Assembly: GCA_019638615.1 (NCBI GenBank) | Contig: JAHBTL010000002.1 | Location: forward strand, 186,001 to 250,000 | From: Chitinophagaceae bacterium | GTDB lineage: Bacteria; Bacteroidota; Bacteroidia; Chitinophagales; Chitinophagaceae | Direction of reading: 5' to 3' | DNA length: 64,000 nt | Shown here: positions 2,999-19,814 of the stretch, in pieces | Layout: each line of letters starts with the position of its first letter | How positions within the stretch are numbered: position 1 is the first letter of the stretch | Program-made: the position numbers and the translations under genes | Notes under the pieces: generated by a model | Told to the model about the DNA's origin: nothing | The model's database searches: none | What the model saw: the letters and a program-made list of their open reading frames with translations, nothing else

Positions 2999-3080
2999 AA
3001 ATTAATCTTTAGTTCTTAAGGGATCACAAATTATCTAATAATTACAAACCTAAACAATTTATCTAAAAGGCAGTAAGGGT

Positions 3081-5009: not shown

Positions 5010-5064
5010 ACCGTTTCATTTTTTAGAGTGCAAAGATAAACAAGGTAACCCAGCAGCATTGAAA

Positions 5065-5093
5065 TAAAAAACCGGTTTCGCAATTGAAACCGG
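5065..5093 (-). terminator. Rho-independent terminator of the beta-barrel gene
   Basis: A perfect 8-bp stem, CCGGTTTC at 5072-5079 and GAAACCGG at 5086-5093, closes a 6-nt loop. On the minus strand it is followed by a T-run (complement of the A-run at 5066-5071). It lies 25 bp past the stop of the minus-strand gene ending at 5118. Confidence 0.8.
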
Positions 5094-5117
5094 CAATATC
5101 TGTTCGTTTGAATAAGT

Positions 5118-6011: not shown

Positions 6012-6021
6012 TCTTTTATAG

Positions 6022-6040
6022 GTACGTTAAGGTAACGTAC
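6022..6040. promoter_or_regulatory. Short palindrome upstream of the beta-barrel gene
   Basis: A perfect 8-bp inverted repeat, GTACGTTA and TAACGTAC, around a 3-nt centre, ends 10 bp upstream of the minus-strand start codon at 6011. It could be an operator or an mRNA leader hairpin close to the ribosome binding site. Only the symmetry is seen; the role is inferred. Confidence 0.35.
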
Positions 6041-6161
6041 AAGTTGGGTAAAAATTAAATTAATTTAAAAATAATTCTTATAAATCTAAAAATAATGCCC
6101 AATCACATTTCGCACAAACCCCAATTCATAATAAAATGATAATTTAACGTAAGCTAATCAG

Positions 6162-7058
6162 TTACCATAAACTTTTAGGATATTCTCCGCTGGAAACCAA
6201 TTCGTTAATGCTGTTTTGCACGATGGGTGCATCTTCTTTGTATGTTACTCCGAACCACTCTGCCTGGGTAGGTATTACTTTTAACGCATTATCGGGAAGG
6301 GTGATAAACTTTGCTGCCATATCAACCACATATACTTCAGCTTTAGGCTGGTTGATATTTTTTGCAAGGAAATCATCAAACAATTCCTTGGCAATGGTAA
6401 ACGCGTACGGAGTAAAACACCAAAAGTTCATAGAAACTTTCGAATCAAAGGGTACTTCTGTTTTCTTGCCATCGTCTTCATATACAATTTTATCGCCTTC
6501 GCGGTAAATTTTTGTGCGTTCGTTTATTTCAACAAGATTATTGGAGGCATCTGTTTTACATACACCCCTGCTTACAGACCCGTTATCCGACAGGGTTTTT
6601 ACCAGCTCGTATCCGATCAGCCCAAAAGTATGATCATTGGCTTCCTGCGTCAAAAAGTCGTATGCTTTGCGGAAAGCGTCACGCCCGTAAAAATCGTCTG
6701 CATTAATTACAATAAAAGGCTCGTGTACCGCAGTAGAGGCGCACAATATCGCATGGGCTGTTCCCCAGGGTTTTGTACGTTCTGCAGGAATGGTATGCCC
6801 CTCCACAAATGAGCTTAGATCCTGGTATACATAATCTGTTGCAATTTTATCTTTCAGCCTGGGTTCAAATATCTTTTTAAAATCGTCTGCAAATTCTTTT
6901 CTTATAATAAATACAACCTTACCAAATCCTACTTTTATAGCATCATAAATGGAATAATCCATTATTGTTTCGCCTGAAGGTCCAAAGCCCTGTACCTGTT
7001 TTAAACTGCCGTACCTTGAAGCCATTCCAGCGGCCATAATTACTAATGTGGGTTTCAT
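6162..7058 (-). CDS. Sugar-phosphate nucleotidyltransferase family protein
   Basis: A 298-residue protein of the NTP-transferase fold (UTP-glucose-1-phosphate uridylyltransferase/RfbA-like). Seen: N-terminal nucleotide-binding signature AAGMASRYGSLKQ at about residues 9-21, the follow-on GPSGETIMDYSIYDA, and VINADDFYG near residue 118 where the family's metal-binding Asp sits. It should activate a sugar phosphate to an NDP-sugar in the cytosol; the actual sugar cannot be read from sequence. No glycan-synthesis genes adjoin it, although a possible glycosyltransferase remnant lies about 0.6 kb away. The first gene upstream on the same strand is far away, so it likely has its own promoter in 7059-7341. 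Confidence 0.85.
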   Translation of the reverse strand: MKPTLVIMAAGMASRYGSLKQVQGFGPSGETIMDYSIYDAIKVGFGKVVFIIRKEFADDFKKIFEPRLKDKIATDYVYQDLSSFVEGHTIPAERTKPWGTAHAILCASTAVHEPFIVINADDFYGRDAFRKAYDFLTQEANDHTFGLIGYELVKTLSDNGSVSRGVCKTDASNNLVEINERTKIYREGDKIVYEDDGKKTEVPFDSKVSMNFWCFTPYAFTIAKELFDDFLAKNINQPKAEVYVVDMAAKFITLPDNALKVIPTQAEWFGVTYKEDAPIVQNSINELVSSGEYPKSLW

Positions 7059-7341
7059 GTTTCCTTATTGTGGTTATTAAACTTTATTACTTTTTGTAAA
7101 TACCGTTTATATTCTATATCAATATTTAGTAAAACGCGAAAATAAAGAAATAAGAGTAAAATCAGGTTGATATATGATGATTTTAATGCAGGTATATATC
7201 TAAACGAATCAAATATCCGACCGGAGAAGGCAGCAGGTTCGTAAATTGGCGTCAAATCATTGATGCATGTTCCTGTCCTACCCAGTAAAGCACTGGATAT
7301 TTACGCTTGCTGCAGCTCCATTGTTCATGTATGTGTAGCAG

Positions 7342-7653
7342 TTGTTTTCTTCGCGCCCGGAAAAACATATTGGGAACCTGCTTAATGTATACATTCCTAC
7401 ACTGCTATTTTCAACCTTGCTGTCGTTGCCTGCTTTTATTATCTATTTCCTGGTATTTGGCCTGTTGAAGAAAAGGGAAATTGATATCGCGATCATCAAG
7501 CTCACTTCTATTGCTTTAGCCGTATGTAGCATTATAATTACCATGCAGCTAGCATTACCCAAAGCGCCTGTATGGGATGCCTTTAAAACGATGTACATAG
7601 TATCTGCTGTAATCGGTGGATTATTGTTTGAGATCAAAGATCACCAACAATAA
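7342..7653 (+). CDS. Small membrane protein, possibly 5'-degraded
   Basis: The frame from 7342 encodes about 103 residues with three hydrophobic segments (about 21-43, 51-70 and 79-95) and a basic KKREID loop between the first two, so it would be a three-pass inner-membrane protein. There is no ATG in frame before residue 68; an in-frame TAG at 7336-7338 means initiation must be at TTG 7342 or another non-ATG codon. The gene may therefore have lost its normal start. The hydrophobic pattern and composition look coding. No family recognised. It overlaps a minus-strand frame by 20 bp at its 3' end. Confidence 0.45.
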   Translation: MFSSRPEKHIGNLLNVYIPTLLFSTLLSLPAFIIYFLVFGLLKKREIDIAIIKLTSIALAVCSIIITMQLALPKAPVWDAFKTMYIVSAVIGGLLFEIKDHQQ

Positions 7654-7864
7654 GCTTTGAACTTTTCAGATATTGAATTGACAGTAATCGCAAATAAATA
7701 GAGAATACTTTAATAAGCGTAAGTGCAGAGATTACTCTCCGAACGTTCAGGGTGGTCGGGATCTCAATGACTGTAATTTTTTTTCCCTGCGATACAGCTT
7801 GTATGAACGTTTGAATTGAACCAATGTTTCGGCGGTAGAAGCAGTCCAAAATGGTTATCTTCAT
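7634..7864 (-). pseudogene. Possible C-terminal remnant of a family-2 glycosyltransferase
   Basis: A 76-residue minus-strand frame reads like the end of a GT2 glycosyltransferase: a QAVSQGKKITVIEIPTTLNV stretch resembles the usual 'G-x-K-I-x-E-I-P-V-T-L' region that follows the catalytic domain, followed by a hydrophobic SALTLIKVFSIYLRLL segment. The catalytic part is missing. It overlaps the small membrane gene by 20 bp and is squeezed between two plus-strand genes. A chance frame is the main alternative. Confidence 0.25.
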
Positions 7865-7900
7865 AAATACCTAACTTCAACAACCATAATCAACCACAGG

Positions 7901-8692
7901 ATGAAATTTATTTTAACTGTATCATTCGCATTGCTTCTTTTATCGTGCAATAACACAGGCAACCAGGAACAACCTGATGCTCAAAACCAAACATTCAATG
8001 TTGATACTGCCGGTATACTCAAAGATTATACTACCTGGTATAATTACGTTTATTATAACATGCCGCTATCTGCCAATTTTATTGGATTAGATGTTGACTC
8101 CTCAGTGCTTGATAAAGCAACCTTCTTAAATAATTTGATGCAGGGAAACAGGATAGCGTTTAAAACCAGACTATTCCGGGGACAACCAGTTTATAAACTG
8201 CATATACTGAACAACGGGAATAAAAATATCGCCGGTACGGTAGCACAACTGGCTGAAATTGAAATGGGGCATTATAAAATGGAAGGAAAAGAAATTCCTT
8301 CATTCAGCTTTACCGATCTGAATGGAATGAACTATACCAATGCCTCAACCCAGGGCAAAACAATGGTTTTAAAATGCTGGTTCATCAGTTGTGTAGCCTG
8401 CGTTAAAGAATTTCCCGATTGCAATAAGCTGATTGATGAATATTCCGGCAGGGAAGACATCGTTTTTGTAAGTCTTGCCTTTGATAAGAAAAATGACCTT
8501 ATACAATTTTTGAAAAACAAACCGCTTAAATATAGCGTGGTTCCTGAAGCAGAGGCTTACATGCGAGACAGCTTAAACATCTCCATTTACCCTACGCATT
8601 TACTTATTGACAAGACAGGGAAAATTGTAAAAGTTGTAAATTCCCTCGAAGAGCTAAAGCCATTCCTGGAAAAAACAATAAGCGCCATTTGA
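7901..8692 (+). CDS. TlpA-like thioredoxin-fold lipoprotein
   Basis: A 263-residue periplasmic lipoprotein. The N-terminus is a lipoprotein signal (MKFILTVSFALLLLSC) with the acylated Cys at about residue 16. The C-terminal half is a TlpA/AhpC-type thioredoxin fold: WFISCVACVKEFP carries the CxxC redox pair (CVAC, about residues 163-166), and YPTHLLIDKTGKIV carries the cis-Pro and the family's 'DKxGKI' strand. It should act as a thiol-disulfide reductase or oxidase outside the cytoplasm. The first 130 residues have no recognised domain. It stands alone, followed by a hairpin repeat and a convergent gene. Confidence 0.88.
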   Translation: MKFILTVSFALLLLSCNNTGNQEQPDAQNQTFNVDTAGILKDYTTWYNYVYYNMPLSANFIGLDVDSSVLDKATFLNNLMQGNRIAFKTRLFRGQPVYKLHILNNGNKNIAGTVAQLAEIEMGHYKMEGKEIPSFSFTDLNGMNYTNASTQGKTMVLKCWFISCVACVKEFPDCNKLIDEYSGREDIVFVSLAFDKKNDLIQFLKNKPLKYSVVPEAEAYMRDSLNISIYPTHLLIDKTGKIVKVVNSLEELKPFLEKTISAI

Positions 8693-8742
8693 TCAGTAAG
8701 TTCCTCTGCTAATCTTCTTCTATGTCGCCGGAGTCGGCATCA

Positions 8743-8776
8743 GTCCTGTACGCGGCGAAGACGCCACGTACAGGAC
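8743..8776. repeat. Intergenic hairpin between convergent genes
   Basis: Arms of 15 bp with one mismatch (8743-8757 and 8762-8776; core GGCG-AAGA-CGCC, outer GTCCTGTACG/CGTACAGGAC) form a strong hairpin between the convergent ends at 8692 and 8833. It is followed by a low-complexity stretch (8786-8840) built from imperfect copies of AGCTGA/CAGCCCA words. It may be a bidirectional terminator or a dispersed repeat. Confidence 0.55.
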
Positions 8777-8832
8777 AAGACACATAACACTGATAGCTGA
8801 CGGCTGATAGCTCTCAGCCCATTGCCCACAGC

Positions 8833-11800
8833 TCACAGCCCCTTCCCTCCCATCGCCTTCGCAATCGCTTCCAGGTGCTCATTAAATGAGCTCAATTGCA
8901 GCAATACCTGCCCGGTAGTATTGCCGGCTTCCAGTCCGCCGAATTTATTGTTCTTCCTGAATGTTTCTTTAATACTGTTCCAGCGTTCCGTTTCTTCCGG
9001 CGTAAGCAGTCCGGCGATTTCCTTCAGCTTCAGCAGGTTGGCTTCCGCATCGGAGGTAAGGGTTTGAGATTCTCCTTCGTAATGAGAAAGGATAAGCGTA
9101 TTGATCTCTTCACCGTTCATCAGCGGCACGACTTTAGCAGCCATCTTATTCATATTGCGATAAGAGCCCTGCAATTTAAACGGCGGCTCGATACGATAAG
9201 CGTCTTTCATTGCCGCGCTGGCTATATACTGCTGGTTAACGCGTATAACTATGCCGCGTATATGTAATATGTTTTTCAACACTGCGATCGCGTCTTCTAT
9301 TTCCTGCTGGTTATAATTGCCTTCCAGCTCAGGCAGCATATCGCTTTCGCTTTCTATATAGTTGATCAGCTTGTATAAATCTTCAATGCTTCGCCCCGCA
9401 ATGCGCTGCAGGTATCGGTTTTCGGCAACCGAATTTTCAACCAGGCTCAGGTTGAATAAATAGCCGGAATTACCGATCACATCGCCCAGGTTATACACGT
9501 CCGCACGGTTAGCCAGCATATCCGGGATTTTAAACTGTTCCCCGCTTTCCGTATACGGGTTGCCTGCCATTACCACGCAAAAACGTTTGCCGCGCAAATC
9601 GTAGGTTTTGCTTTCTCCCTCAAATATGCCGTCCATTTTACGCTGACCGTCTGCCAGCGAAATAAACTTCTGCAAAAACTCCGCGCTGCAATGTTGTATA
9701 TCATCTATATACAGCATCACATTGTCCGCCATTTCAAAAGCAAGGTTTATTTTTTTCAGCTCTTCCCTGGCGCCAGAAGTGGTAGCTTCTACAGGATCAA
9801 TAGAAGTGATATTATGACCGATGGTTGGCGCATTGATCTTCACAAAATGAAAGCCCATGGTTTTGGACAGGTATTCCATCAGGGTGGTTTTGCCGTAACC
9901 CGGCGGAGAAACCAACAGCAGCATACCCATCCTGGCGGTTCGTTTATCATCTCCAGCGGCGCCCACCTGTTTGGCAAGATTGGCGCCTATCAATGGAAAA
10001 TATATTTCGTTGATCAACCGGTTACGCACAAACGAAGTCAGCACCTTGGGCTCGAACTCGCCTATTTTTAATTGCTGCCTGTAGCTCCGGACCAACTGCT
10101 CCTTTAACACGTTGAAGGCCGTATAGGCAGGAACAACCTGCTCATAATACGTCCACATTTTCTGCATGAACCGGTGAAAATTCAGCTCGTATTTTCCATC
10201 CCGGATCACAGCATGGGTTCCTTTTAACCCTTCAATACTCAATATATCCGAGGCGGCCCTTTCCCTATACTGGTGGTCTTTAAACAACAACAGGCAAACA
10301 GCTTCATCTACATATTGCTGATCTGCTCCCTCCTGCTGTATCTGCACGAAAGCCAGCAACCATCCCTGTACCAGGTAAAAGCGCTCGGTAATATTAAAGC
10401 CGGCATTGTTTATTTCTTGCTGAAAAATATCTGTTCGTTTTTTAGACTGCAAAAATGCCTTAAATGATTTTTTAAGACGCAAAGCCTGCTCACTGACAGT
10501 AAAATTCCTGGAAGCGGAAAATTCGCTGTACAGGTATGCAGCTACTTCCTTCGCCGGTACTTTTTCATATGCTATGGCGGCATGCTGGTACTGCTCCGCT
10601 ATTCCTTTCTCTACAAAAGCAAACTGCCGGCTTTGCGGAAAGCTTTCCTGTATGGCATGAGCCGCGGTGATGAGCTGCTGCAATTTTTGCCTGGCCGCAT
10701 CTTCCAGTTGGAACCAGAACAACTGGGCAGCCACGCGGACAGGTGGCGCGTATTGCAATATCCTCAGCTCCTCCTGCAGCTTTTTCAATCCCCGGCAGAT
10801 CAGCAACGCATCGGTATTATGCACTCCTTTAAGGTAAGCCGCCGCATAATCACGCTCGGTTCTTTCATTAATGAACGCTTCATCATCCCAATGCCCGATC
10901 TGCAAATTGCTTTCCACATAGGCCTGGTAAGCCAGGTATTCCGAACGGTACACGGCATTATTCTCAGAGATCAGCTCCTGCTCCCATATGGCTTTATATT
11001 GATACAATGCCTCAGCGGTAACCTGCTTGTAAAAGCTGGTACCAATCAGGTGATAAAATAACTGGTCATTTCTGCGGACAATGGTTAAGTTGAGCACCTG
11101 TTTGTTCACAACAAATTTATAGCTGCCAAGCGCAATGATATTCTGCCCGTCAACAAACAGCTCTGTTTTATCTTTTAAGGTCCGCAACGCGTTTTCCTGC
11201 GTCACTTTTACCAGGTTCTCCAGATTTTCCGCCTTGGCTACATCGCCCAGTTCCCTTAAATCATTTACAATACTACGCACCTTATCAATCATCAGGTCGG
11301 TAGAGAAAAACGCGTAAATGCTCTCCTTGTCGTTGAACGATTGGGCTTTGTTCTCAATATTTTTCAGCACCCGTATACCGATCTGCTCCAGCGAGGCCGT
11401 ACGTTTATTGATCTGCGCGATCAGCAATTCCTTTTTGCCGTTAAAGGCTTTGATCACTTCATCGCGCTTATCGGTAATTTTTGTAACAAAATCTTCAAAA
11501 TCTGCAAACTTGCTTTCCAGCTCTTCTATCTGTATACTGATCTTTGTAAAATAGTCTTCGCATTTTTCAGGAGAATCGGAAAGATCAAGAAAGTTAACAA
11601 TGCTTTGATCGAGCAGCGTTAACTGCGCATAGAACTCACCGGTAGATTCTTTGGTGCGCAAAGCCGTAGTCGTCCGTACCAGGTCTGCTTTCACTTCATT
11701 CAGCGAAGCGAATATCAACGAGATCTTCTCTACGATCTTCGTGGTTTGGGTAGTGTCTTCAATTTTAAGACTGTTGAGTATATCAATCAGCATTTCCAGC

Positions 11801-13677
11801 TCGGCAGCAATAGCTTTTACCGCTTCTTCAATCGCCTGTGCTTCTATTACTTTTGTTACCGTGGTTACCGCCTGTTTCTGCTGCACCACTTTTTCCTCGT
11901 AAGGAGCAAGGGCTTCCTCCTTCAATAAAAACTGTATGGTATCCTGCGATAGTGAAGTATTGTATTGCTGCAGGATTTCCTTTAAACTGTTTACAGCCTG
12001 AACATCCACATACTTAACATTCAGCAGGTCAATTACAGCGCCCTGCATGCTGCGCGTAGCCGCAAGCAGTTGCACCAATTGGTCAAGGGAAGTGACAGAC
12101 GCGTTCTTTATATCTACCACCAGGCTGTCCACACGTTTATGCATAGCCGCCAATACATCACGGGCGTGCTGCCGCTGCGCCTGCACTTTCGCAAATTCAT
12201 CAATGGCGGTATTGGCTATATCTCTTATCTGTGTCAAAGGAACTGACAGTTCAAACGTAGCCGCGTCCTTTACCCAGAAATAGGAATCAATGATATCGTT
12301 CGCTCTTTTATGAATGTCTTCATATAGGTCTTCATAACTATCTTCCTTTTGCAGCAGTTGTATCACTTCCTGGCATTCACTCATGGCGCTCACGATATCT
12401 TTATTCCCAATTTTATACAGCACATTGCCGGCCATCTCTTTATTTTCTTCCAGCACTGCCGTATAGGGCGTTTGCCATATCTGCACCTGGTGGTGACGCA
12501 CCGCTTCATTTTCAGAGCGAAAATATACCAGCGTACCGTCATCAAACACGGTAAAGCCGTTACAGGTAATGGGCGTTTCTACCTGCTGCACGATCATGTT
12601 ATACGACATCAGCACGTAGGTATTGGTAGTCCGCTGATAAAAAATGTACAGAAAGTCCTCACCGTTGGGCGAAGCAATGCTGCGTATAAATTCAAGACTG
12701 GTTATATCAGACTCAAATATCTTATGCTCACCATTCTGCAGGTAATAACCGTTAGGGAAAATCACTCCCTGGTTATCCGGCAGCAGGATGCCGGCGTTCA
12801 GCAGCATGGGAATTGGCATCACCTGCTTCGTGCGCACATTAAAAATATAAGAACGGAAATCTTCCTGGTAAGGTTTTATTTTTAAAGCGATCAGGTTACC
12901 GAGATCAGCGTAATGATATTCAGCGTCGTCCAGTTGCTGATCCCTGTTCTGCACCGGCTCCGAGTAGATGCCTTTGCCGGTATCTGTATTGTTCTCGATC
13001 TTAAAAGTAATGTCCCCGTTAAGCGCTTCAATAAATACTTTATCGAGTATGGATATATGCGGGTGGATACCGAGACGGCGATTGCTGAGGTCGGTTTTTA
13101 TCCACTGAAAATCGTGCTGCGGCGTTTTTCTTACTTCATGAATGCTGCGGTCATCCATGTACGTGAGCGTACCGTTTTTTATCAGCCATTTAAAAGCCTT
13201 TCTGTCATCAGGATTTTTACTGGTCTGGAAGATCATGTACAAATAATGCTCGGTCTTCCTGAAATTGGCAAAAATGGAATCGCGGTAGTATTTATACAGG
13301 TTGGTGAAATCGGTGATAAAATTGTTGTCTTCAATAAGCGTCAACGGCTGCGGCTCAAAATAGTTGTCCGCAAACTTATAGATGCTGAACACATCGCTTA
13401 GCTTAATATCCTCACGCAGTCCAAAATGTACATTGTAAGCGAAAATGGTGAGGTCGCCAAAAGCCATAATACCCCTTGCCACACCATTGTTCTCCGTAGT
13501 TATACGCTGGTTAGCGATCAGTTGAAAGCCGGATGAATTGAAAATCTCCTTACGCGCCGCATTCAGCTTTGCCAAACGTTGCGACAGATCCAGGCGCTGC
13601 TCATTTAACCGGTTGCGGATGATCTCATACGTTCCGGAGTCCAGTATTGCCGCCTTATTATTTTCAGTACCTGCCAT
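8833..13677 (-). CDS. Giant AAA+ ATPase (DUF3686/'DNA repair ATPase' type)
   Basis: A 1614-residue cytosolic protein. The N-terminal about 430 residues look beta-rich, with repeated short strand blocks, and match the kind of protein annotated as 'DNA repair ATPase' (DUF3686). Residues about 430-900 are largely coiled coil (Glu/Lys/Leu rich). A single AAA+ module sits near the C-terminus: Walker A PPGYGKTT near 1250-1262, Walker B MLYIDDIQ near 1320, and a sensor-1-like VVMAGNP near 1370. Its role is inferred as an energy-driven remodeller working with the membrane proteins encoded just upstream. It is the last gene of a five-gene minus-strand cluster, 71 bp after flotillin. The DNA repair label comes from family naming only; nothing here shows repair. 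Confidence 0.85.
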   Translation of the reverse strand: MAGTENNKAAILDSGTYEIIRNRLNEQRLDLSQRLAKLNAARKEIFNSSGFQLIANQRITTENNGVARGIMAFGDLTIFAYNVHFGLREDIKLSDVFSIYKFADNYFEPQPLTLIEDNNFITDFTNLYKYYRDSIFANFRKTEHYLYMIFQTSKNPDDRKAFKWLIKNGTLTYMDDRSIHEVRKTPQHDFQWIKTDLSNRRLGIHPHISILDKVFIEALNGDITFKIENNTDTGKGIYSEPVQNRDQQLDDAEYHYADLGNLIALKIKPYQEDFRSYIFNVRTKQVMPIPMLLNAGILLPDNQGVIFPNGYYLQNGEHKIFESDITSLEFIRSIASPNGEDFLYIFYQRTTNTYVLMSYNMIVQQVETPITCNGFTVFDDGTLVYFRSENEAVRHHQVQIWQTPYTAVLEENKEMAGNVLYKIGNKDIVSAMSECQEVIQLLQKEDSYEDLYEDIHKRANDIIDSYFWVKDAATFELSVPLTQIRDIANTAIDEFAKVQAQRQHARDVLAAMHKRVDSLVVDIKNASVTSLDQLVQLLAATRSMQGAVIDLLNVKYVDVQAVNSLKEILQQYNTSLSQDTIQFLLKEEALAPYEEKVVQQKQAVTTVTKVIEAQAIEEAVKAIAAELEMLIDILNSLKIEDTTQTTKIVEKISLIFASLNEVKADLVRTTTALRTKESTGEFYAQLTLLDQSIVNFLDLSDSPEKCEDYFTKISIQIEELESKFADFEDFVTKITDKRDEVIKAFNGKKELLIAQINKRTASLEQIGIRVLKNIENKAQSFNDKESIYAFFSTDLMIDKVRSIVNDLRELGDVAKAENLENLVKVTQENALRTLKDKTELFVDGQNIIALGSYKFVVNKQVLNLTIVRRNDQLFYHLIGTSFYKQVTAEALYQYKAIWEQELISENNAVYRSEYLAYQAYVESNLQIGHWDDEAFINERTERDYAAAYLKGVHNTDALLICRGLKKLQEELRILQYAPPVRVAAQLFWFQLEDAARQKLQQLITAAHAIQESFPQSRQFAFVEKGIAEQYQHAAIAYEKVPAKEVAAYLYSEFSASRNFTVSEQALRLKKSFKAFLQSKKRTDIFQQEINNAGFNITERFYLVQGWLLAFVQIQQEGADQQYVDEAVCLLLFKDHQYRERAASDILSIEGLKGTHAVIRDGKYELNFHRFMQKMWTYYEQVVPAYTAFNVLKEQLVRSYRQQLKIGEFEPKVLTSFVRNRLINEIYFPLIGANLAKQVGAAGDDKRTARMGMLLLVSPPGYGKTTLMEYLSKTMGFHFVKINAPTIGHNITSIDPVEATTSGAREELKKINLAFEMADNVMLYIDDIQHCSAEFLQKFISLADGQRKMDGIFEGESKTYDLRGKRFCVVMAGNPYTESGEQFKIPDMLANRADVYNLGDVIGNSGYLFNLSLVENSVAENRYLQRIAGRSIEDLYKLINYIESESDMLPELEGNYNQQEIEDAIAVLKNILHIRGIVIRVNQQYIASAAMKDAYRIEPPFKLQGSYRNMNKMAAKVVPLMNGEEINTLILSHYEGESQTLTSDAEANLLKLKEIAGLLTPEETERWNSIKETFRKNNKFGGLEAGNTTGQVLLQLSSFNEHLEAIAKAMGGKGL

Positions 13678-13710
13678 TCGTTAAAAAGAATTTATCAGCC
13701 TCACCCCAAC

Positions 13711-13730
13711 CCCTCTCTGAACGGAGAGGG
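13711..13730. repeat. Hairpin between flotillin and AAA+ genes
   Basis: A 7-bp perfect stem, CCCTCTC (13711-13717) and GAGAGGG (13724-13730), around a 6-nt loop, sits in the 71-bp gap between the flotillin stop... start region of the AAA+ gene and flotillin. The surrounding words (TCACCCCAACCCCTCTC) are typical of dispersed intergenic repeats in Bacteroidota. It could attenuate readthrough into the ATPase gene. Confidence 0.5.
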
Positions 13731-13748
13731 AGTTAAGCTTTCTTTATT

Positions 13749-15779
13749 TTATCCCAGCTTCTTATTAGACAGCCCCAAACTGCTTGCCAGGTTAGCCAGG
13801 TTTAGCAATGAAGACCTGTCGCCCTCCGAGCTTTTCTGCTGCATTTTCAATATAAGGCTTGATATCGTAAGGTTTTTGATATCATTGGTTGAGACGCCGT
13901 ATTTATCCGCGAACTCCCTGATACGTGCCAGCAGGTCGCCACTGTTAGTACCGTCACCGATCAATGCAGTTTTTATCTGCGAAGCGTTCTCACTTTCATT
14001 GATCAGCCTGTCAAATCCTTTAGCGTTCGATATCTGGTTAATAATATTCTGGAAGAACATTGTTTCACCGCCTACTATATCAATATTGGCAGACCTCAAC
14101 GCTTCTGCAAGAACATCAGCCTGCGCGTCCGCAATATCTTTCTGAATATTGATCTGCGCCAACGCTATATCCCTTTCTTTCTGCAGCAACAGCTTAAACT
14201 CTTCGTGGTCTTTACCAACAGCATCCAGCTTTTTCATTGCTTCCGCTTTTTCTTCAATACCTGCAGCTTCCGCCAATGCCTTTTCTTTGGTTACTTCCGC
14301 CTGCGTTAAGCCTTCTTTGCGTTTTGCTTCCGCTATTTTTTCAATTACGGTAGCGTCTACTGTGCCCTGTCTTTCCGCAGCCTCTGCTTTTGCAATTATT
14401 ACTTCTGCTTCAGACAAACCAAGGGTAGCTTCTTCACGCGCCTGTGCTTCCGCTAAGATCTTACGGGCTTCCGCCTGCTTTACTGCCGCTTCTTTTTTCG
14501 CCTCCGCATCTATCAGCAACTGCTTCGCTTTTTCTTCGGCTGCTTTCTTGTCTGCTTCGGCTGCTTTCACGGTATAAATCAGTTTTTCTTCCGCCTGGCG
14601 GCTCGCCTGTGTAATGCCCACCGTTTTTTCACGCTCTACTGCGCGGAAAGCTTCTATATCCTTTACCCCCTGCTGCTCTTCTACCACTCCTTTTTCCAGG
14701 CGTACACGCTCTTTGATCACATCCTGTATATTCTTACGCTCTACCTCAAGGGTCTTTTCTTTTTCTATCTGTGCAAGGGTAACGATCTTTTCACGCTCCG
14801 TTTGCTCCAGCCCCCGGTCTTTTTCCACTCTCTCCGTTTCTACTGCTTCGGTTCTTTGCTTGTTCTTTTCAGCGATAATGATCTGGCGCAATTTATTTTC
14901 TTCCTGCACGGCAAGCGATTCATCGGTTTGTATACGTACCGTTTGCGCTCTCAGCCTTTCTTCTTCACGCACTTTAATGATTTCAGCGTTTTCACGCGAA
15001 CGAATATTATCAATTTCTCTTTTCTGCTTTTCTTCTTTCTCGGCCATCTGGCGCTCTAATTCCAGTATCGCCTCACGCGCTTCCACATTCTGCTTTTTAA
15101 TTACTTTCTCTTCTTCACGTTTAATGAAGTTTGCTTTGATATTCTGTTCAGCGGTCAGCTCGGTAATCTTTTTTATGCCCTGCGCATCGAGAATGTTCTG
15201 CGGGCTGAGATAGCTGATATCGGTTTGTTCAAGATAATCAATAGCGCAGTCATCTAGTACATAACCGTTCAGGTCCGTACCTATAATATTCAATATCTCT
15301 GTCCTGAATTCCCGGCGGGCCTCGTACAATTCAATAAAATCAAATTTCTTACCCACTGTTTTTAATGCTTCGGAAAATTTTGCTTCAAAAAGATTACGCA
15401 AAGTATCTACATCGCTGGCTCTTTCAGTGCCAATGGCCTGCGCCACGTTTAACACATCGTCCACGTTCTTATTTACACGAACAAAGAAAGCCACTTTAAT
15501 ATCAGCGCGGATATTATCCTTACAAATCAATCCTTCGTTCGACATACGATCAATTTGTAATTTTTTCACCGATATGTCCATGATCTCCATTTTATGGAGG
15601 ATAGGAATGACATACATACCTTTATTAAAAGCTACTTTACCGCCGCCAACACCGGTACGCACGATTGCTTTGCCCTGCGGTATTTTTTTGTAAAACGTGG
15701 CAAAAGCGAAAAGAATAATGAATATGAGGAAAACAACTCCTCCTATAAGCAGTAAGGTGATGCCGCCGAATGCTCCCAT
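13749..15779 (-). CDS. Flotillin-like SPFH/Band-7 protein
   Basis: A 676-residue membrane scaffold. Seen: an N-terminal hydrophobic anchor (about 5-28, rich in Ile/Leu/Phe), an SPFH/Band-7 domain (about 35-215) containing GGGKVAFNKGMYVIPILHKM, then a very long Glu/Ala/Lys-rich coiled coil (about 220-560) and a C-terminal helical region. Flotillins oligomerise and organise membrane microdomains. It is fourth in the cluster, after the NfeD/YqiJ-like gene, the pairing typical of flotillin loci in bacteria. It is longer than classic YuaG/FloT proteins because of an extended coiled coil and tail, which may be where the AAA+ partner engages (inference). Confidence 0.93.
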   Translation of the reverse strand: MGAFGGITLLLIGGVVFLIFIILFAFATFYKKIPQGKAIVRTGVGGGKVAFNKGMYVIPILHKMEIMDISVKKLQIDRMSNEGLICKDNIRADIKVAFFVRVNKNVDDVLNVAQAIGTERASDVDTLRNLFEAKFSEALKTVGKKFDFIELYEARREFRTEILNIIGTDLNGYVLDDCAIDYLEQTDISYLSPQNILDAQGIKKITELTAEQNIKANFIKREEEKVIKKQNVEAREAILELERQMAEKEEKQKREIDNIRSRENAEIIKVREEERLRAQTVRIQTDESLAVQEENKLRQIIIAEKNKQRTEAVETERVEKDRGLEQTEREKIVTLAQIEKEKTLEVERKNIQDVIKERVRLEKGVVEEQQGVKDIEAFRAVEREKTVGITQASRQAEEKLIYTVKAAEADKKAAEEKAKQLLIDAEAKKEAAVKQAEARKILAEAQAREEATLGLSEAEVIIAKAEAAERQGTVDATVIEKIAEAKRKEGLTQAEVTKEKALAEAAGIEEKAEAMKKLDAVGKDHEEFKLLLQKERDIALAQINIQKDIADAQADVLAEALRSANIDIVGGETMFFQNIINQISNAKGFDRLINESENASQIKTALIGDGTNSGDLLARIREFADKYGVSTNDIKNLTISSLILKMQQKSSEGDRSSLLNLANLASSLGLSNKKLG

Positions 15780-15816
15780 AGTTTTTTAGTTTAGAGATTT
15801 GTTATTAGAAATTTTT

Positions 15817-15841
15817 GATTTGAAATTTGAAATTTGAAATT
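15817..15841. repeat. 7-bp tandem A/T repeat
   Basis: Three head-to-tail copies of GAAATTT with period 7 lie in the 139-bp gap between the NfeD-like gene and flotillin. The same word family recurs at 15919-15945, 60071-60111 and 60351-60373. Confidence 0.7.
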
Positions 15842-15918
15842 ATAAAATACGAACAATACCATTTCGTTGCTTTAGATATTTAAGCCTCGCATCTGCCACC
15901 GCCTCTCCATACCAAATC

Positions 15919-16611
15919 TCAAATATCGAATTTCAAATTGTTTAAATTCACCTCCTTCACCACCATGTAATATTTCCTGTCTGCCGATTCATCCGCGATC
16001 ATTACATCCGCACCATATTCCAACACTTCCCCGGTTTTGCTTTGCACATTCACCCGTATCACATCGCTGCCGATCACCAGTTCCGCTGCACCGATGATAT
16101 TGCCCGAAATGGTTGAACGCATTTTTGCAATACGCCCCATCAGATCATGACCTTCTTCTCCGTTATAACCCATAGCATGATACACTTTAACCAATGGCTT
16201 TGTAGCATAACGGGTAATAATAAACGCCACAAAAAACACGGGTATTAAAATAAATACTGATTTCCAGCCCCAGCTCGCCAGGCCTAATGCTACAGACGAA
16301 GTTAACGTTACGATCCATGCAATGAACTTAAACGTGCTGAACACTATCATGAAAGGCACTTTACCTATATTCACATATTCCAGGGCTTTCTGGAAAAACG
16401 GCTTATCTCCCACGGAATCGTTCAGGTCAGCATCCCCATCCACATCGGTGTCTATATCGGCCCCATGCAGGTCAACATCCACGTCCGTATCCCCTCCAAA
16501 AAAATCTCCGGCAATAAAAGTGAAGATCCAGTACAGCGCTGTAATGCCTGACAAAACCGTCATGATTGCATTGCTTAAGGGATGGAACAGTAGCTTAACA
16601 AATTCTGACAT
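15919..16611 (-). CDS. NfeD/YqiJ-like membrane protein with C-terminal OB fold
   Basis: A 230-residue inner-membrane protein of the type encoded beside flotillins. Seen: a hydrophobic segment at about 12-36, an acidic linker full of alternating Asp (residues about 41-68, DTDVDVDLHGADIDTDVDGD), two or three membrane segments (about 85-150), and a soluble C-terminal beta domain (about 160-225) with the GRIAKMRSTISG start expected of an NfeD-like OB fold. The Asp-rich loop faces a membrane surface and could bind divalent cations (inference). It starts 3 bp after the PspA stop codon, so the two are translationally close. The last residues come from an A/T repeat that provides the stop codon. Confidence 0.85.
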   Translation of the reverse strand: MSEFVKLLFHPLSNAIMTVLSGITALYWIFTFIAGDFFGGDTDVDVDLHGADIDTDVDGDADLNDSVGDKPFFQKALEYVNIGKVPFMIVFSTFKFIAWIVTLTSSVALGLASWGWKSVFILIPVFFVAFIITRYATKPLVKVYHAMGYNGEEGHDLMGRIAKMRSTISGNIIGAAELVIGSDVIRVNVQSKTGEVLEYGADVMIADESADRKYYMVVKEVNLNNLKFDI

Positions 16612-16614
16612 AGA

Positions 16615-17328
16615 TTATTGTGGATTTTCCGGAATACCGAGTTTTTCTTTTATCGCTTTCAGGTCCTTTTCTATTGATAAGGAATCATCCTTTAAAATAT
16701 TGTTCAATTCGTCCTTTAAATTATTCTTGGCATGCGCAATTTCACCATAGGCTTTCGACAATGCTTCCTGGTCTTCAACTTTGGCTTTCATCCGCTCCAG
16801 CATGGCAATGGTACCATTATTATCAAGCTGCGCCAACTGTTTGTTCACCTGTTCCGTGGCCTTGCTCACCTTAACCCTTGCTTTCAAAGTCTTCAACTCT
16901 TTTTCCCACTTCTCAAGGTTCTCTTTCAGCACTTCGGTATTTCGCAACATTTCCCTGGAAGATTGCTGAAGGGATACCACCTGGTTACCCAATTCTTCCG
17001 ATTCGGCATAGAACTTCCTGCGCAACGACAGCGCTTCCCTTGCCAGATCTTCGGCTTTTCCTATTTCCACCTGTCCTGCCTGTGCTTTTTGCATAATCAG
17101 GATGGCTTTTTCCGCATAATTCATGGATTCCTTCTGGCACAACGCCTGCTCATTTTCTGTACGAATGGCCAAAGCTTTAACTTTAGCATAAGCCTCTGTA
17201 GCTTCCACCAGGTCTTCACGCAATTCCCGCAGGCCCTGTTCCGTCATCTTTACAGGGTCCTCCATTTTCTCCACTGCCGCGTGTATTTCAGCCTGGCCAA
17301 TCCTGAAAAGTCTTTTAAAAATATTCAT
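16615..17328 (-). CDS. pspA: PspA/IM30 (Vipp1) family membrane-stress protein
   Basis: A 237-residue, almost wholly helical protein. The N-terminus MNIFKRLFRIGQAEIHAAVEK is the amphipathic membrane-binding helix of the family, followed by the EDPVKMTEQGLRELREDL region and long coiled-coil hairpins. PspA-type proteins form ESCRT-III-like rods and rings that bind and repair stressed membranes. There is no PspB/C/F or other classic psp partner in the window. The start codon at 17326-17328 is 42 bp downstream of the YbjN-like gene, and the stop almost abuts the NfeD-like start. Family assignment is firm; the specific job in this cluster is inferred. Confidence 0.93.
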   Translation of the reverse strand: MNIFKRLFRIGQAEIHAAVEKMEDPVKMTEQGLRELREDLVEATEAYAKVKALAIRTENEQALCQKESMNYAEKAILIMQKAQAGQVEIGKAEDLAREALSLRRKFYAESEELGNQVVSLQQSSREMLRNTEVLKENLEKWEKELKTLKARVKVSKATEQVNKQLAQLDNNGTIAMLERMKAKVEDQEALSKAYGEIAHAKNNLKDELNNILKDDSLSIEKDLKAIKEKLGIPENPQ

Positions 17329-17370
17329 GCTAAACTATTTTAATGGTTTACAATTATTATTCTATACTCA

Positions 17371-17763
17371 TTATTTCTTTGAAAAATCAATGATCTCCTG
17401 CGCGTACTCGCTCATCAGCAAACCCAGCGAATTAAGGGCCCCTTCAAATTCGTTGAAGCTGATACGCTCTATCTGCATGGTATACCTGAACAGCACCTTA
17501 TTGCCTTCTTCATTTATCACGAACGCGCCGTGAATGGTATCCCTGTTTTTTTGTAATAACCGCTTAAACATTTCCGTATTATCCACCCGGAAAGAAAAAA
17601 GAAACTGCTCCATTATTAAAATAGGCGGCGCAATACCAATAATAAGATTATGAATTCCGTCTGGCTCGTTATCAATTTTAAGAATGCCGTTCTGTTCATT
17701 TTTATACGCGATCCGGCAGTTGAGCCTGGTGGCAAATTGTTCTATGGTGTTGATATAGTCCAT
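17371..17763 (-). CDS. YbjN/CesT-Tir-chaperone-like small protein
   Basis: A 130-residue cytosolic protein with the alpha-beta-beta-alpha layout of YbjN/type III-chaperone-like folds: an N-terminal helix (DYINTIEQFATRLN), central strands, HGAFVINEEGNKVLFRYTM, and a C-terminal helix (FEGALNSLGLLMSEYAQEII). Small proteins of this fold (YbjN, DUF2170/YjfI) are known neighbours of PspA genes. It is the first gene of the cluster. A Bacteroidota promoter (17789-17820) lies upstream, and AAGG is placed suitably before the ATG at 17761-17763. Proposed role: adaptor or chaperone for PspA or the ATPase (inference). Confidence 0.75.
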   Translation of the reverse strand: MDYINTIEQFATRLNCRIAYKNEQNGILKIDNEPDGIHNLIIGIAPPILIMEQFLFSFRVDNTEMFKRLLQKNRDTIHGAFVINEEGNKVLFRYTMQIERISFNEFEGALNSLGLLMSEYAQEIIDFSKK

Positions 17764-17788
17764 TGGCCTTGTTTTCAGCTTTGTTCAA

Positions 17789-17820
17789 CAAATCTACAAA
17801 ACGAAAATGACAATTGCAAA
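17789..17820 (-). promoter_or_regulatory. Promoter of the PspA/flotillin cluster
   Basis: On the minus strand a TTTG -33 element (17820-17817) is followed after 20 bp by TAGATTTG (17796-17789), a full match to the Bacteroidota -7 consensus TAnnTTTG. Transcription would start near 17783, about 20 bp before the first gene's ATG. Confidence 0.7.
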
Positions 17821-17831
17821 AAATATTTGCA
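17815..17831. promoter_or_regulatory. Candidate operator palindrome in the divergent promoter
   Basis: A perfect inverted repeat, TGCAAA-N5-TTTGCA. Its left arm overlaps the -33 element of the leftward promoter, and its right arm abuts the -33 element of the rightward promoter at 17832. The half-site is repeated as part of a 9-bp direct repeat ATATTTGCA at 17823-17831 and 17856-17864, 33 bp apart. Likely bound by the adjacent XRE regulator (inference). Confidence 0.55.
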
Positions 17832-17862
17832 TTTGTGATAAAAAAATTTACAACTATATTTG
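17832..17862 (+). promoter_or_regulatory. Promoter of the XRE regulator (leaderless transcript predicted)
   Basis: TTTG at 17832-17835, 19-bp spacer, then TATATTTG at 17855-17862, matching TAnnTTTG. The usual start site about 5 bp downstream would fall at or next to the ATG at 17869, so the mRNA would have little or no leader. Confidence 0.65.
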
Positions 17863-17868
17863 CATGTC

Positions 17869-18546
17869 ATGACAAAGATCGGAGCCAATATCAAAAAGAT
17901 ACGTACAACCAAAGGCTTAAGTCAGCAGGCTTTTGCCGATTTGTTTGAACTTACCCGGGGCAACATATCTTCCTACGAAGAAAACAGGGCGGAGCCCCGT
18001 ATTGAAACCGTTATCCGGATTGCCAATTATTTTGGCATACCCCTGGATCATTTTATTACCCGGCATATCACGATCAATGAAATCCTGAAGTTTAACGGCG
18101 ATAAGCTGATCGGGGAAGAAAATCATATCATTAAGCTGCATTTACGCGAAGTGCCTTTTATAAATGATAATATATACATGAAATGCTGTTACCAGGAGCT
18201 GCAGTTCAACGAATGGGATGCTTTTCCAAAACTGGTACTGCCCGAAACCAGCAATAAAAACCTGGTAGCTTTAACATTTAATAATAATATTCCTCACCAC
18301 GAATCCCTCCCCGATTACCAGATGCACGATGTGTTGATCTTTGAAGAAGTAACACAGCAGAATATTCATCTTTGTCAACATAAAATCGGCTTATATACCG
18401 GCGAAAGAGAGATGATGATAGGGAAATACGAGATGAAGCAAACTCAGGTGGAACTGGTATTGAATGATTTTAAGAAACAAAAATTTGACTTTAAAAAGCC
18501 GATGATGTTCTGGAAGCTGTTTGCGGTGTATCAGCATGTGGGATGA
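17869..18546 (+). CDS. XRE-family regulator with degenerate S24-like C-terminus
   Basis: A 225-residue DNA-binding protein. The start at ATG 17869 (MTKIGANIKKIR) is chosen over an upstream TTG because the promoter ends at 17862. Residues about 5-60 form a helix-turn-helix of the HTH_3 type (GLSQQAFADLFELTRGNISSYEENR). The C-terminal half (about 95-225) has the strand order of a LexA/CI S24 domain, including a DVLIFEEV strand, but there is no GDSM-like catalytic serine at the expected place, so self-cleavage is not predicted. It is divergent from, and shares a palindrome with, the PspA/flotillin cluster, the usual arrangement of a local repressor or activator. Confidence 0.85.
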   Translation: MTKIGANIKKIRTTKGLSQQAFADLFELTRGNISSYEENRAEPRIETVIRIANYFGIPLDHFITRHITINEILKFNGDKLIGEENHIIKLHLREVPFINDNIYMKCCYQELQFNEWDAFPKLVLPETSNKNLVALTFNNNIPHHESLPDYQMHDVLIFEEVTQQNIHLCQHKIGLYTGEREMMIGKYEMKQTQVELVLNDFKKQKFDFKKPMMFWKLFAVYQHVG

Positions 18547-18806: not shown

Positions 18807-19814
18807 TTAAGCAGCTTTTTGCTGTACTAAGAATTTATGCAATAAAAATAATACAAAAGGGAATGAAAAAATAACCAACCATATCATTGTATTCCTCGGC
18901 AGGATGTCATAGCAATAATTTAAGGTATATACCGAGCTCGCATAACAAATACAACACAATGCGCTTATAATATCTACCTGCTGATTTGAGTAGCGTTCTA
19001 CATGCAATTTGATATTTTCTTTCAGATCATTTTTATAGTTACTATTTTTTTGAGGAAGAAAACCTGCCAGAAGAATAAAGTTTTGCATAATATATACAGC
19101 AGAAATTCCCAGGAAAAAATATTGTACAGCCAGAAGCGCATTATAGGAAAAATATTTAGATGATTCAATATCACCCTGGTTATATACTTTATAAATATTA
19201 TCAATCGAAATTACAAACACAACAATCGTGCTCCAGATACTTAACCACAAGCGCTGCCTGTTGGAAAGGTGAATATTGGTAAAAGAATGAACAACAGAAA
19301 AAACGATAAAAGGTAAGGAAAGAATAGCGCAGGCAATTAAAAAAATGCTGTTAAACCTGAACGCCTGCAAGTCAATTAGCCAGTAAAGAAAAGAAACGGA
19401 AAGAAGCAGAGTAATCCCTTCTGTTAGTTTTGCCGTAACCTTTTCTTTATTAAAAATGGCGAAAAAAAGCAAATACATAAAAAGAAAAAAATAAGGCCAG
19501 AATCCTATATGGTTTTCAAAGTTATAGTCATATTCTCTTTTCCCCGGAAGGAATGCTATTAAGCTTGCAGCATACGCTGTAACAAACCCGCCCACAACAT
19601 TTTTCCAGTTGTCTGCAATTCTGAAACTTTCCATCAATAGTCCTGCAAATAAGGGTAGCAAGCTGTTTGCAAAAAAATGCCTTTCACTGGTAGATATCCT
19701 GTAAATAATATAGATAGTAAAAAGCAGGGCTAATATGCCCAATACAATCACAACAGGTGTCAGGTCAAATCCGGCGCTTTTGGATTTCTTTTTCCGCTTT
19801 TTCTTTATGGCCAA
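18807..19814 (-). CDS. Multi-pass membrane protein of unknown function
   Basis: A 335-residue protein with a very basic N-terminus (MAIKKKRKKKSKSAG) followed by about eight to nine hydrophobic segments, and a C-terminus ending FLLHKFLVQQKAA. There is no recognised catalytic motif or transporter signature. A 45-residue hydrophilic loop near residues 248-282 contains KNDLKENIKLHVERYSNQQ. The basic tail suggests the N-terminus stays in the cytoplasm. It is followed 12 bp later by a 53-residue basic ORF. The divergent space to the histidine kinase gene carries a multi-hairpin element. Confidence 0.75.
   Translation of the reverse strand: MAIKKKRKKKSKSAGFDLTPVVIVLGILALLFTIYIIYRISTSERHFFANSLLPLFAGLLMESFRIADNWKNVVGGFVTAYAASLIAFLPGKREYDYNFENHIGFWPYFFLFMYLLFFAIFNKEKVTAKLTEGITLLLSVSFLYWLIDLQAFRFNSIFLIACAILSLPFIVFSVVHSFTNIHLSNRQRLWLSIWSTIVVFVISIDNIYKVYNQGDIESSKYFSYNALLAVQYFFLGISAVYIMQNFILLAGFLPQKNSNYKNDLKENIKLHVERYSNQQVDIISALCCICYASSVYTLNYCYDILPRNTMIWLVIFSFPFVLFLLHKFLVQQKAA

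What the first reader, a model, noticed from the sequence alone, without database searches (positions are those of the whole stretch)
8833..18546. PspA-flotillin-NfeD-AAA+-YbjN membrane-remodelling cluster with its own divergent regulator
Seen: five same-strand genes (YbjN/CesT-like, PspA/IM30, NfeD/YqiJ-like, flotillin, 1614-residue AAA+ ATPase) with short gaps, opposite an XRE regulator. Established: PspA forms ESCRT-III-like assemblies, flotillins scaffold membrane domains, NfeD-like proteins accompany flotillins, and comparative surveys of PspA (recalled, not checked) report neighbourhoods with AAA+, Band-7 and chaperone-like proteins. Inference: a bacterial analogue of ESCRT-III plus a Vps4-like ATPase, with the AAA+ protein remodelling PspA or flotillin polymers. 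No classic PspB/C/F is present, so sensing may run through the XRE protein.
Basis: partly seen in the sequence, partly recalled or inferred. Interest (0 to 1): 0.85.

Follow-up and report, generated by a model that had tools for sequence, protein, structure and literature searches.

The report
Self-regulated flotillin–PspA–ATPase membrane operon
A published set of bacterial membrane-protection genes sits here with what looks like its own dedicated switch gene and DNA switch site, and its large ATPase is tied more closely to the flotillin scaffold than to the ESCRT-III-like protein PspA.

Summary
In detail: five minus-strand genes (CesT/Tir-like, PspA, YqiJ-like, flotillin, 1614-aa DUF3686 AAA+ ATPase) face an XRE regulator at 8833–18546. 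The gene set is already in print: Ravi et al. 2024 (PMC11237479) describe this operon and infer an ESCRT-like role. Three points go beyond the text I read there. (1) The XRE gene is a sixth component: all six genes keep order and orientation in 47 of 54 Bacteroidota loci with enough flank, and among 198 genomes the best XRE matches fall in exactly the six DUF3686 genomes. (2) A palindrome, TGCWAA-N5-TTWGCA, lies within 130 bp upstream of the XRE gene in 43 of 44 loci (shuffles: mean 0.47), mostly beside Bacteroidetes –7 boxes. (3) Flotillin lies upstream of the ATPase in 63 of 65 loci, while none of 7 non-Bacteroidota loci has the six-gene form and only one has a recognised PspA. So the ATPase looks primarily like a flotillin/YqiJ partner. 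It is not shown to be Vps4-like: no MIT domain was found and its AAA+ clade is unresolved.

The parts
8833..13677 (-). 1614-aa ATPase: DUF3686 (res. 30–467), DUF7902 (588–667), AAA+ domain (about 1250–1400)
   Evidence: Pfam 551/84/35 bits; Walker A SPPGYGKTT, Walker B YxDDIQH, AGNPYTES and NR[AS]D conserved in 23 of 23 aligned homologues
13749..15779 (-). flotillin (YqiK-like SPFH protein; N-terminal hydrophobic stretch and long coiled coil read by eye)
   Evidence: Band_7 53.5 bits on residues 1–212; 30% identical to E. coli YqiK
15919..16611 (-). YqiJ/DUF1449-like membrane protein
   Evidence: PF21001 19 bits, below cut-off; BLASTP E 5e-6 to E. coli YqiJ; Hymenobacter orthologue annotated DUF1449
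16615..17328 (-). PspA/IM30 (ESCRT-III superfamily)
   Evidence: PF04012 130 bits; 26% identical to E. coli PspA; the only PspA match in the genome
17371..17763 (-). CesT/Tir-like chaperone (YbjN superfamily)
   Evidence: PF22550 155 bits
17789..17796 (-). predicted –7 box TAGATTTG of the operon promoter
   Evidence: TAnnTTTG 16–18 bp from the operator in 36 of 43 loci
17815..17831 (.). predicted operator TGCAAAAAATATTTGCA
   Evidence: 43 of 44 loci with at most 1 mismatch to TGCWAA-N5-TTWGCA; only match in the window
17855..17862 (+). predicted –7 box TATATTTG of the XRE promoter
   Evidence: mirror element in 28 of 43 loci, 24 of them at 22–23 bp
17869..18546 (+). XRE regulator, 225 aa; C-terminal domain S24/LexA-like in some relatives, catalytic residues not seen
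   Evidence: HTH_3 49.5 bits; PF00717 in divergent orthologues; best matches only in module genomes

Best explanation
A six-gene envelope-protection module with its own switch. The XRE/S24-like protein binds the palindrome between the two divergent promoters and represses both itself and the operon until a membrane or cytoplasmic signal relieves it. The flotillin and the YqiJ-like protein build a membrane microdomain. PspA, escorted by its CesT/Tir-like chaperone, is recruited there to coat and stabilise damaged membrane. The large ATPase uses ATP to load, exchange or dismantle these assemblies, acting first on flotillin/YqiJ and, in Bacteroidota, also on PspA. Shown: gene content, order, co-occurrence, conserved palindrome and its spacing to –7 boxes. 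Inferred: that XRE binds it, repression, signal, physical contacts, ATPase clients.
For: All six genes in order in 47 of 54 Bacteroidota loci with enough flank. All 6 DUF3686 genomes among 198 have the whole module (five, the sixth is the window). Palindrome in 43 of 44 loci, with a –7 box 16–18 bp away on the operon side in 36 of 43. Flotillin upstream of the ATPase in 63 of 65 loci and YqiJ–flotillin in 56 of 61, also in Pseudomonadota, Actinomycetota and Deinococcota. Conserved Walker A, YxDDIQH, AGNP and NR motifs. In B. subtilis an SPFH protein is needed to bring PspA to the membrane (PMC8581546, passages). Other SPFH proteins (HflKC, YbbK) are reported to interact with the FtsH protease, a AAA+ protein (recalled), so SPFH–AAA+ partnerships have precedent (PMC2636767, passages). 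VIPP1/IM30 oligomers are assembled and disassembled by ATP-dependent chaperones (PMC6882379, passages).
Against: No interaction, expression or phenotype data. Co-occurrence does not show which protein is the client. Two loci (L052, L054) carry the ATPase without adjacent flotillin. The module is rare and patchy (6 of 198 phylum genomes, 15 of 195 family genomes), so it is dispensable. Repression rather than activation is inferred from operator position only, and one study could not find the –33 motif in Flavobacterium johnsoniae (as told in PMC7366714, passage). In the P. aeruginosa bac operon it is a CesT-like protein (BacA) whose loss raises its partners' levels (PMC10948618, abstract, section 3.6 and first part of the discussion), so the CesT-like protein here might regulate too. 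PspA rods are reported to bind and hydrolyse ATP themselves (PMC11746142, passages), so PspA may need no separate ATPase. The loci are related, so the shuffles overstate independence.
Confidence: 0.5

Rival explanations
1. One reading: the ATPase is a Vps4 equivalent whose main client is the PspA polymer; flotillin only positions it.
For: PspA is tightly linked to the ATPase in Bacteroidota. Published surveys infer ESCRT-like remodelling from the same neighbourhoods (PMC11237479). In 6 of the 8 sampled genomes that have the CesT–PspA pair without DUF3686, the pair sits beside a J-domain gene, as if an ATP-driven chaperone slot exists for PspA.
Against: Six of seven non-Bacteroidota DUF3686 loci examined lack a recognised PspA but keep flotillin. 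No MIT domain; the AAA+ clade is not specifically close to classical AAA.
Confidence: 0.25
2. The ATPase is a DNA-repair enzyme, as its Pfam description and record annotations say.
For: Pfam PF12458 is described as 'ATPase involved in DNA repair' and several plasmid records name it DNA repair ATPase. Weak similarity to RuvB/RarA-type proteins. A Shewanella flotillin-family knock-out raised spontaneous mutation, which its authors tied to iron leakage (PMC1468410, passages).
Against: The conserved neighbours are membrane or membrane-associated families plus the regulator. No experimental paper on DUF3686 turned up among the listed results (20 of 62 listed; 15 of 23 listed).
Confidence: 0.08
3. 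The module is an anti-phage defence system.
For: Patchy distribution, location on a plasmid in Hymenobacter, and an XRE/S24-like regulator resembling those of mobile elements.
Against: Of seven proteins scanned, PADLOC hits are only HTH-type matches of the XRE protein and a 17.8-bit P-loop match of the ATPase. No recognisable toxic effector; conserved partners are stress families.
Confidence: 0.07

Closest known systems
CesT/Tir–PspA–flotillin–AAA+–YqiJ operon of Ravi et al. 2024 (PMC11237479; section 19 read whole; passages)
   Same: The same five protein kinds; it also reports shorter operons with flotillin, YqiJ/YuaF and sometimes the ATPase.
   Different: The main text has no 'XRE', 'LexA', 'S24' or 'operator' (figures and supplements not seen). 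The XRE component, operator and counts are added here.
Psp networks of Popp et al. 2022 (PMC9239133; passages)
   Same: PspA with band-7/FloT proteins and HTH regulators in several phyla; NfeD as partner.
   Different: No DUF3686 ATPase module or operator in the passages seen.
B. subtilis pspA-ydjGHI (PMC8581546; passages)
   Same: SPFH protein needed for PspA membrane foci.
   Different: No AAA+ ATPase among the operon's genes as described; sigma-W control.
E. coli yqiJ-yqiK (PMC2636767, passages)
   Same: YqiJ-like plus flotillin pair.
   Different: No DUF3686 gene next to it in MG1655.
P. aeruginosa bac operon (PMC10948618; abstract, section 3.6 and first part of the discussion)
   Same: A CesT/YbjN-like protein in an operon that its authors suggest may be an original Psp system.
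   Different: The CesT-like protein is of the DUF2170/YjfI family; the authors suspect it of the regulatory role.
ESCRT-III/Vps4
   Same: A PspA-superfamily polymer encoded beside an AAA+ ATPase.
   Different: No MIT domain found; the ATPase partners flotillin where PspA is not found.

Membership tests
Ravi et al. 2024 CesT/Tir–PspA–flotillin–AAA+ operon | CesT/Tir–PspA dyad | tested here: met
   PF22550 155 bits and PF04012 130 bits, 42 bp apart
Ravi et al. [quoted passage not shown]
   Band_7 53.5 bits; 30% identity to YqiK; TM stretch and coiled coil read by eye, not predicted
Ravi et al. [quoted passage not shown]
   AAA+ met; beta-propeller not confirmed: structure prediction off, PDB profile search of residues 1–470 gave one weak hit, E 0.075
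Ravi et al. 2024 CesT/Tir–PspA–flotillin–AAA+ operon | YqiJ/YuaF-type 3TM protein | tested here: met
   BLASTP E 5e-6 to E. coli YqiJ, weak but over most of the protein; PF21001 below cut-off; number of TM segments not predicted
Vps4 | N-terminal MIT domain | tested here: not met
   residues 30–467 are DUF3686; no MIT hit in the Pfam scan at E up to 1
Vps4 | classical AAA clade (second region of homology) | tested here: inconclusive
   P-loop-centred hits to Rix7, NVL, p97 and midasin (60 of 194 shown); local hhalign scores of AAA+ proteins of this genome: RarA-like 67, RuvB-like 59, 266-aa AAA_3-like 55, Lon-like 53, L138 (second-best PF00004 protein) 52, FtsH-like 46, MoxR-type 33 and 29 (names by eye; L152, L154 and L156 not scored)
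Vps4 | acts on ESCRT-III polymers | not testable with these tools
   needs biochemistry
Classical Psp (pspFABC) | PspF, PspB, PspC in the locus | tested here: not met
   none among the Pfam hits of the eight proteins scanned; a PspC-domain protein elsewhere in the genome
LexA/S24 repressors | S24-like C-terminal domain | tested here: inconclusive
   over cut-off in 3 of 8 divergent orthologues, 0.2 bits under in a fourth; no S24 hit in any of 28 closer relatives including the window protein
LexA/S24 repressors | catalytic Ser–Lys dyad | tested here: not met
   by eye, no GxSM at the aligned position in any of 18 rows and Arg or Gly at the Lys position in the rows that align well; four rows align poorly (motif recalled)

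The most novel reading that the evidence does not exclude
The DUF3686 protein is a dedicated, non-protease AAA+ machine of bacterial YqiK-type flotillin microdomains. It remodels flotillin/YqiJ cages across phyla and was extended in Bacteroidota to recycle PspA. The job of ATP-driven PspA recycling is filled in different lineages either by this AAA+ machine or by a PspA-linked J-domain/HSP70 (and perhaps HSP90) system.
Probability: 0.3. Interest if true: 0.75.

Novelty: new member of a known kind. Interest (0 to 1): 0.45.

Why it matters
It is open what powers turnover of bacterial ESCRT-III-like polymers: a 2024 PspA structural paper only speculates about chaperones or PspF in the role of Vps4 (PMC11746142, passages). 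Which ATPase, if any, serves YqiK-type flotillin domains is, to my knowledge, also open (recalled; only HflKC/YbbK with FtsH was seen in print). This module puts both polymers, an ATPase and a likely dedicated regulator with a defined putative operator in one 10-kb cassette, so both questions and the inducing signal become directly testable.

Tried and rejected
I first read the AAA+ motifs by eye as MoxR-like; profile comparison with AAA+ proteins of this genome did not support that (the two MoxR-type proteins scored 33 and 29), so the clade is left open. DNA-repair and phage-defence readings were considered and ranked low. A PDB profile search of the DUF3686 region found nothing usable. A conserved PspA C-terminal motif (L..[LI]K) was seen in both ATPase-linked and ATPase-free PspAs, so it cannot mark ATPase docking. 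A generic sigma-70 and terminator scan found little above shuffles (30 promoter-like sites against a mean of 20.4, 13 terminator-like against 9.9) and does not cover Bacteroidetes promoters. The palindrome was first seen by eye in the window and widened to TGCWAA-N5-TTWGCA after reading the relatives, so one search is not a blind test; its shuffles do not correct for relatedness. The 75-bit line for XRE matches was drawn after seeing the scores.

L029 is counted as lacking XRE there because its XRE lies beyond the 8.5-kb limit (one search shows it). Absence of PspA means no match to profiles built from this module's PspAs; distant PspAs could be missed. Of the 12 plasmid-collection records with a match I examined 8. 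One search used 130 bp or less upstream of the XRE start in 44 loci; L112 was read separately and L121, L122, L125 were not included. The 14 'strong' CesT matches are those over 150 bits; 29 genomes have some match.
Full report
WHAT IS THERE. Pfam and BLAST give DUF3686–DUF7902–AAA for the 1614-aa protein, a Band_7/YqiK-like flotillin, a weakly matching YqiJ-like protein, PspA and a CesT/Tir-like protein; the regulator is an XRE-type HTH protein. YbjN itself scores only at threshold. The genome (7.18 Mb, 87 contigs) has this one PspA, four Band_7 matches including this one, and a PspC-domain protein on another contig. Base composition is not unusual for the window. Judged by its closest loci the genome is a Chitinophagaceae-like member of Bacteroidota: the closest listed locus is 95% identical in the ATPase.

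ALREADY IN PRINT. Ravi et al. 2024 (PMC11237479; passages and all of section 19; [quoted passage not shown] They note shorter flotillin–YqiJ(–ATPase) operons elsewhere and infer ESCRT-like roles. Popp et al. 2022 (PMC9239133, passages) report band-7, NfeD and HTH neighbours of PspA. So the gene set and the broad inference are not new. The terms XRE, LexA, S24 and operator do not occur in the Ravi main text; its figures and supplements were not seen. DUF3686 occurs in none of the papers listed by two searches (20 of 62 listed; 15 of 23 listed), and a search for PspA, flotillin, XRE, repressor, Chitinophaga and Band 7 (at least 4 of 6) found none.

CONSERVATION. A genome-contig scan gave 51 loci. 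With further loci and plasmid records there are 71 distinct DUF3686 loci, the window included. Of 61 with at least 5.2 kb upstream, 47 have divergent XRE, CesT, PspA, YqiJ, flotillin and ATPase in that order; all 47 are among the 54 from Bacteroidota. The seven Bacteroidota exceptions are L029 (XRE present but farther off), L030, L031, L037, L052, L054 and L061. Flanks are not conserved: the best flank family is shared by 8 of 35 loci, and the window's two outer neighbours match 0 and 2 ORFs. In an even sample of 198 genomes of the phylum, DUF3686 occurs in 6, and all six have the whole module (five, the sixth is the window). The XRE protein has matches at 1e-5 in 37 of 198 genomes; those of 75 bits or more are in exactly the 6 DUF3686 genomes, at the module, and the next is 51 bits. 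In four of the five other genomes the reported match covers only the first 76–114 residues, so the C-terminal half diverges quickly. Strong CesT matches occur in 14 genomes, all next to PspA; PspA itself is in 82. Hypergeometric p for DUF3686 with strong CesT is 4e-8, with the XRE matches 1e-11 and with any PspA 0.0045, all ignoring phylogeny. In the family sample 15 of 195 genomes have DUF3686.

THE ATPASE FOLLOWS FLOTILLIN. Of 65 loci with at least 2.5 kb upstream, 63 have flotillin upstream of the ATPase, in some with extra genes between. Of 12 plasmid-collection records with a match I examined eight. One is Hymenobacter with the full module; the other seven (Proteus, Vibrio, Pseudomonas plasmid pQBR103, Streptomyces, Deinococcus, Halomonas, Nonomuraea) all have flotillin, six have a YqiJ-like match there (28–71 bits) and Streptomyces a weak one (17 bits). 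None of the seven has the six-gene form, and only pQBR103 has a recognised PspA, of another subfamily, within a YjfI–PspA–polyamine operon directly upstream of the triad. The simplest history is a widespread YqiJ–flotillin–ATPase triad to which XRE, CesT and PspA were joined in Bacteroidota. This is inference from gene order, not from trees.

THE SWITCH. The XRE–CesT intergenic region holds a 17-bp palindrome (17815–17831). Within 130 bp upstream of the XRE start, at most one mismatch to TGCWAA-N5-TTWGCA is found in 43 of 44 loci, 37 of them perfect; Markov shuffles average 0.47 (largest 3) at that tolerance. In the best site of each of the 43 loci the central five bases are A or T but for one G. 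A TAnnTTTG box, the published Bacteroidetes –7 element (PMC7366714, passage), lies 16–18 bp beyond the operator on the operon side in 36 of 43 loci, and a mirror box on the XRE side in 28 of 43 (24 at 22–23 bp); shuffled sequences contain such boxes in 33-bp stretches in a mean of 1.5 (largest 6) and 1.2 (largest 5) of 44. The palindrome half TTTGCA could overlap a –33 TTTG of the operon promoter; the same passage says that the –33 motif was not found in Flavobacterium johnsoniae. In the own genome the perfect pattern occurs 7 times (reversed control 1), and only the module copy has an all-A/T spacer, which points to a local rather than global regulator. The one exception (L102) and the Hymenobacter plasmid (L112) carry a different palindrome, GCTCAA-N3-TTGAGC, and their XRE recognition helix reads ARPSVGAYEE where the window has TRGNISSYEE. 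This fits co-change of protein and site, but is probably one event; helices intermediate between the two (L101, L105) keep the common site. The C-terminal half of the regulator matches Peptidase_S24 above cut-off in 3 of 8 divergent orthologues and just below in one, and the Hymenobacter one is annotated 'LexA family', but none of 28 closer relatives gives an S24 hit. By eye the catalytic Ser and Lys are absent in the rows that align well, so LexA-like self-cleavage is not expected.

THE ATPASE DOMAIN. Across 23 homologues Walker A (SPPGYGKTT), YxDDIQH, AGNPYTES and an NR[AS]D motif are conserved, which suggests an active ATPase. The clade is unresolved: profile hits to Rix7, NVL, p97 and midasin centre on the P-loop, and AAA+ proteins of the same genome rank RarA-like (67) and RuvB-like (59) above a 266-aa AAA_3-like (55), Lon-like (53), another PF00004 protein (52), FtsH-like (46) and the two MoxR-type ones (33, 29); the differences are small and names are by eye. 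No MIT domain was found. The beta-propeller reported in print could not be checked.

MECHANISM. The most likely reading is a repressor-controlled membrane-protection cassette in which flotillin and YqiJ form a scaffold, PspA with its chaperone coats membrane there, and the ATPase turns the assemblies over. Support from elsewhere: in B. subtilis PspA foci need an SPFH protein (PMC8581546), other SPFH proteins interact with the FtsH protease (PMC2636767), and VIPP1/IM30 oligomers are remodelled by HSP70–J-protein and HSP90 systems (PMC6882379). Against it: PspA rods hydrolyse ATP themselves (PMC11746142), and in P. aeruginosa a CesT-like protein is the suspected regulator (PMC10948618). A telling side result: of the eight sampled genomes with the CesT–PspA pair but no DUF3686, six carry a J-domain gene directly upstream of CesT (PF00226 33–53 bits) and the other two a polyamine-type operon (L094 scanned; L097 by eye). 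So the same pair seems to be coupled to different ATP-driven chaperones. That keeps alive an action of the AAA+ protein on PspA, and is the best evidence for the rival.

VERDICT. Observation confirmed; the neighbourhood is real, strongly conserved and already published. The additions are the sixth gene, its putative operator and the finding that flotillin, more than PspA, is the ATPase's constant companion.

Noticed in passing
L090:15106-15546, L091:2372-2848, L092:14289-14699, L093:14419-15066, L095:1979-2497, L096:14179-14598: A J-domain gene (PF00226, 33–53 bits) lies directly upstream of CesT–PspA in 6 of 8 sampled genomes that have the pair without DUF3686; its N-terminus resembles PspA's amphipathic start by eye. 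Recalls VIPP1–HSP70–CDJ2. DnaJ, J-domain, Hsp70 and HSP90 do not occur in the Ravi main text.
   Followed up: partly
L090:11905-13773, L092:10566-12431: A gene that looks like htpG (HSP90) by eye is the next large ORF downstream of pspA in two of those loci (not scanned against families).
   Followed up: no
L029, L031, L037, L042, L055, L056, L063, L070 between flotillin and ATPase: ORFs of 100 aa or more lie between flotillin and ATPase; L031/L037 share a lipoprotein-like gene and L042/L056 share three small genes, by eye.
   Followed up: no
L115 (pQBR103) 995-14199: YjfI–PspA–rhomboid–DUF2491–DUF350–DUF1190–glutathionylspermidine synthase genes run straight into the YqiJ–flotillin–ATPase triad, joining two operon classes that Ravi et al. 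list apart.
   Followed up: partly
L102 and L112 intergenic regions: Different palindrome GCTCAA-N3-TTGAGC together with a changed XRE recognition helix.
   Followed up: partly
own genome contig C25:78576-78893: PspC-domain protein (763-aa frame, two matches) far from the module.
   Followed up: no
window 18807-19814: 335-aa membrane protein (hydrophobic by eye) upstream of the XRE gene, no family above threshold, not conserved with the module.
   Followed up: no
window 17855-17869: The predicted XRE –7 box ends 6 bp before the ATG, so its mRNA may be nearly leaderless.
   Followed up: no
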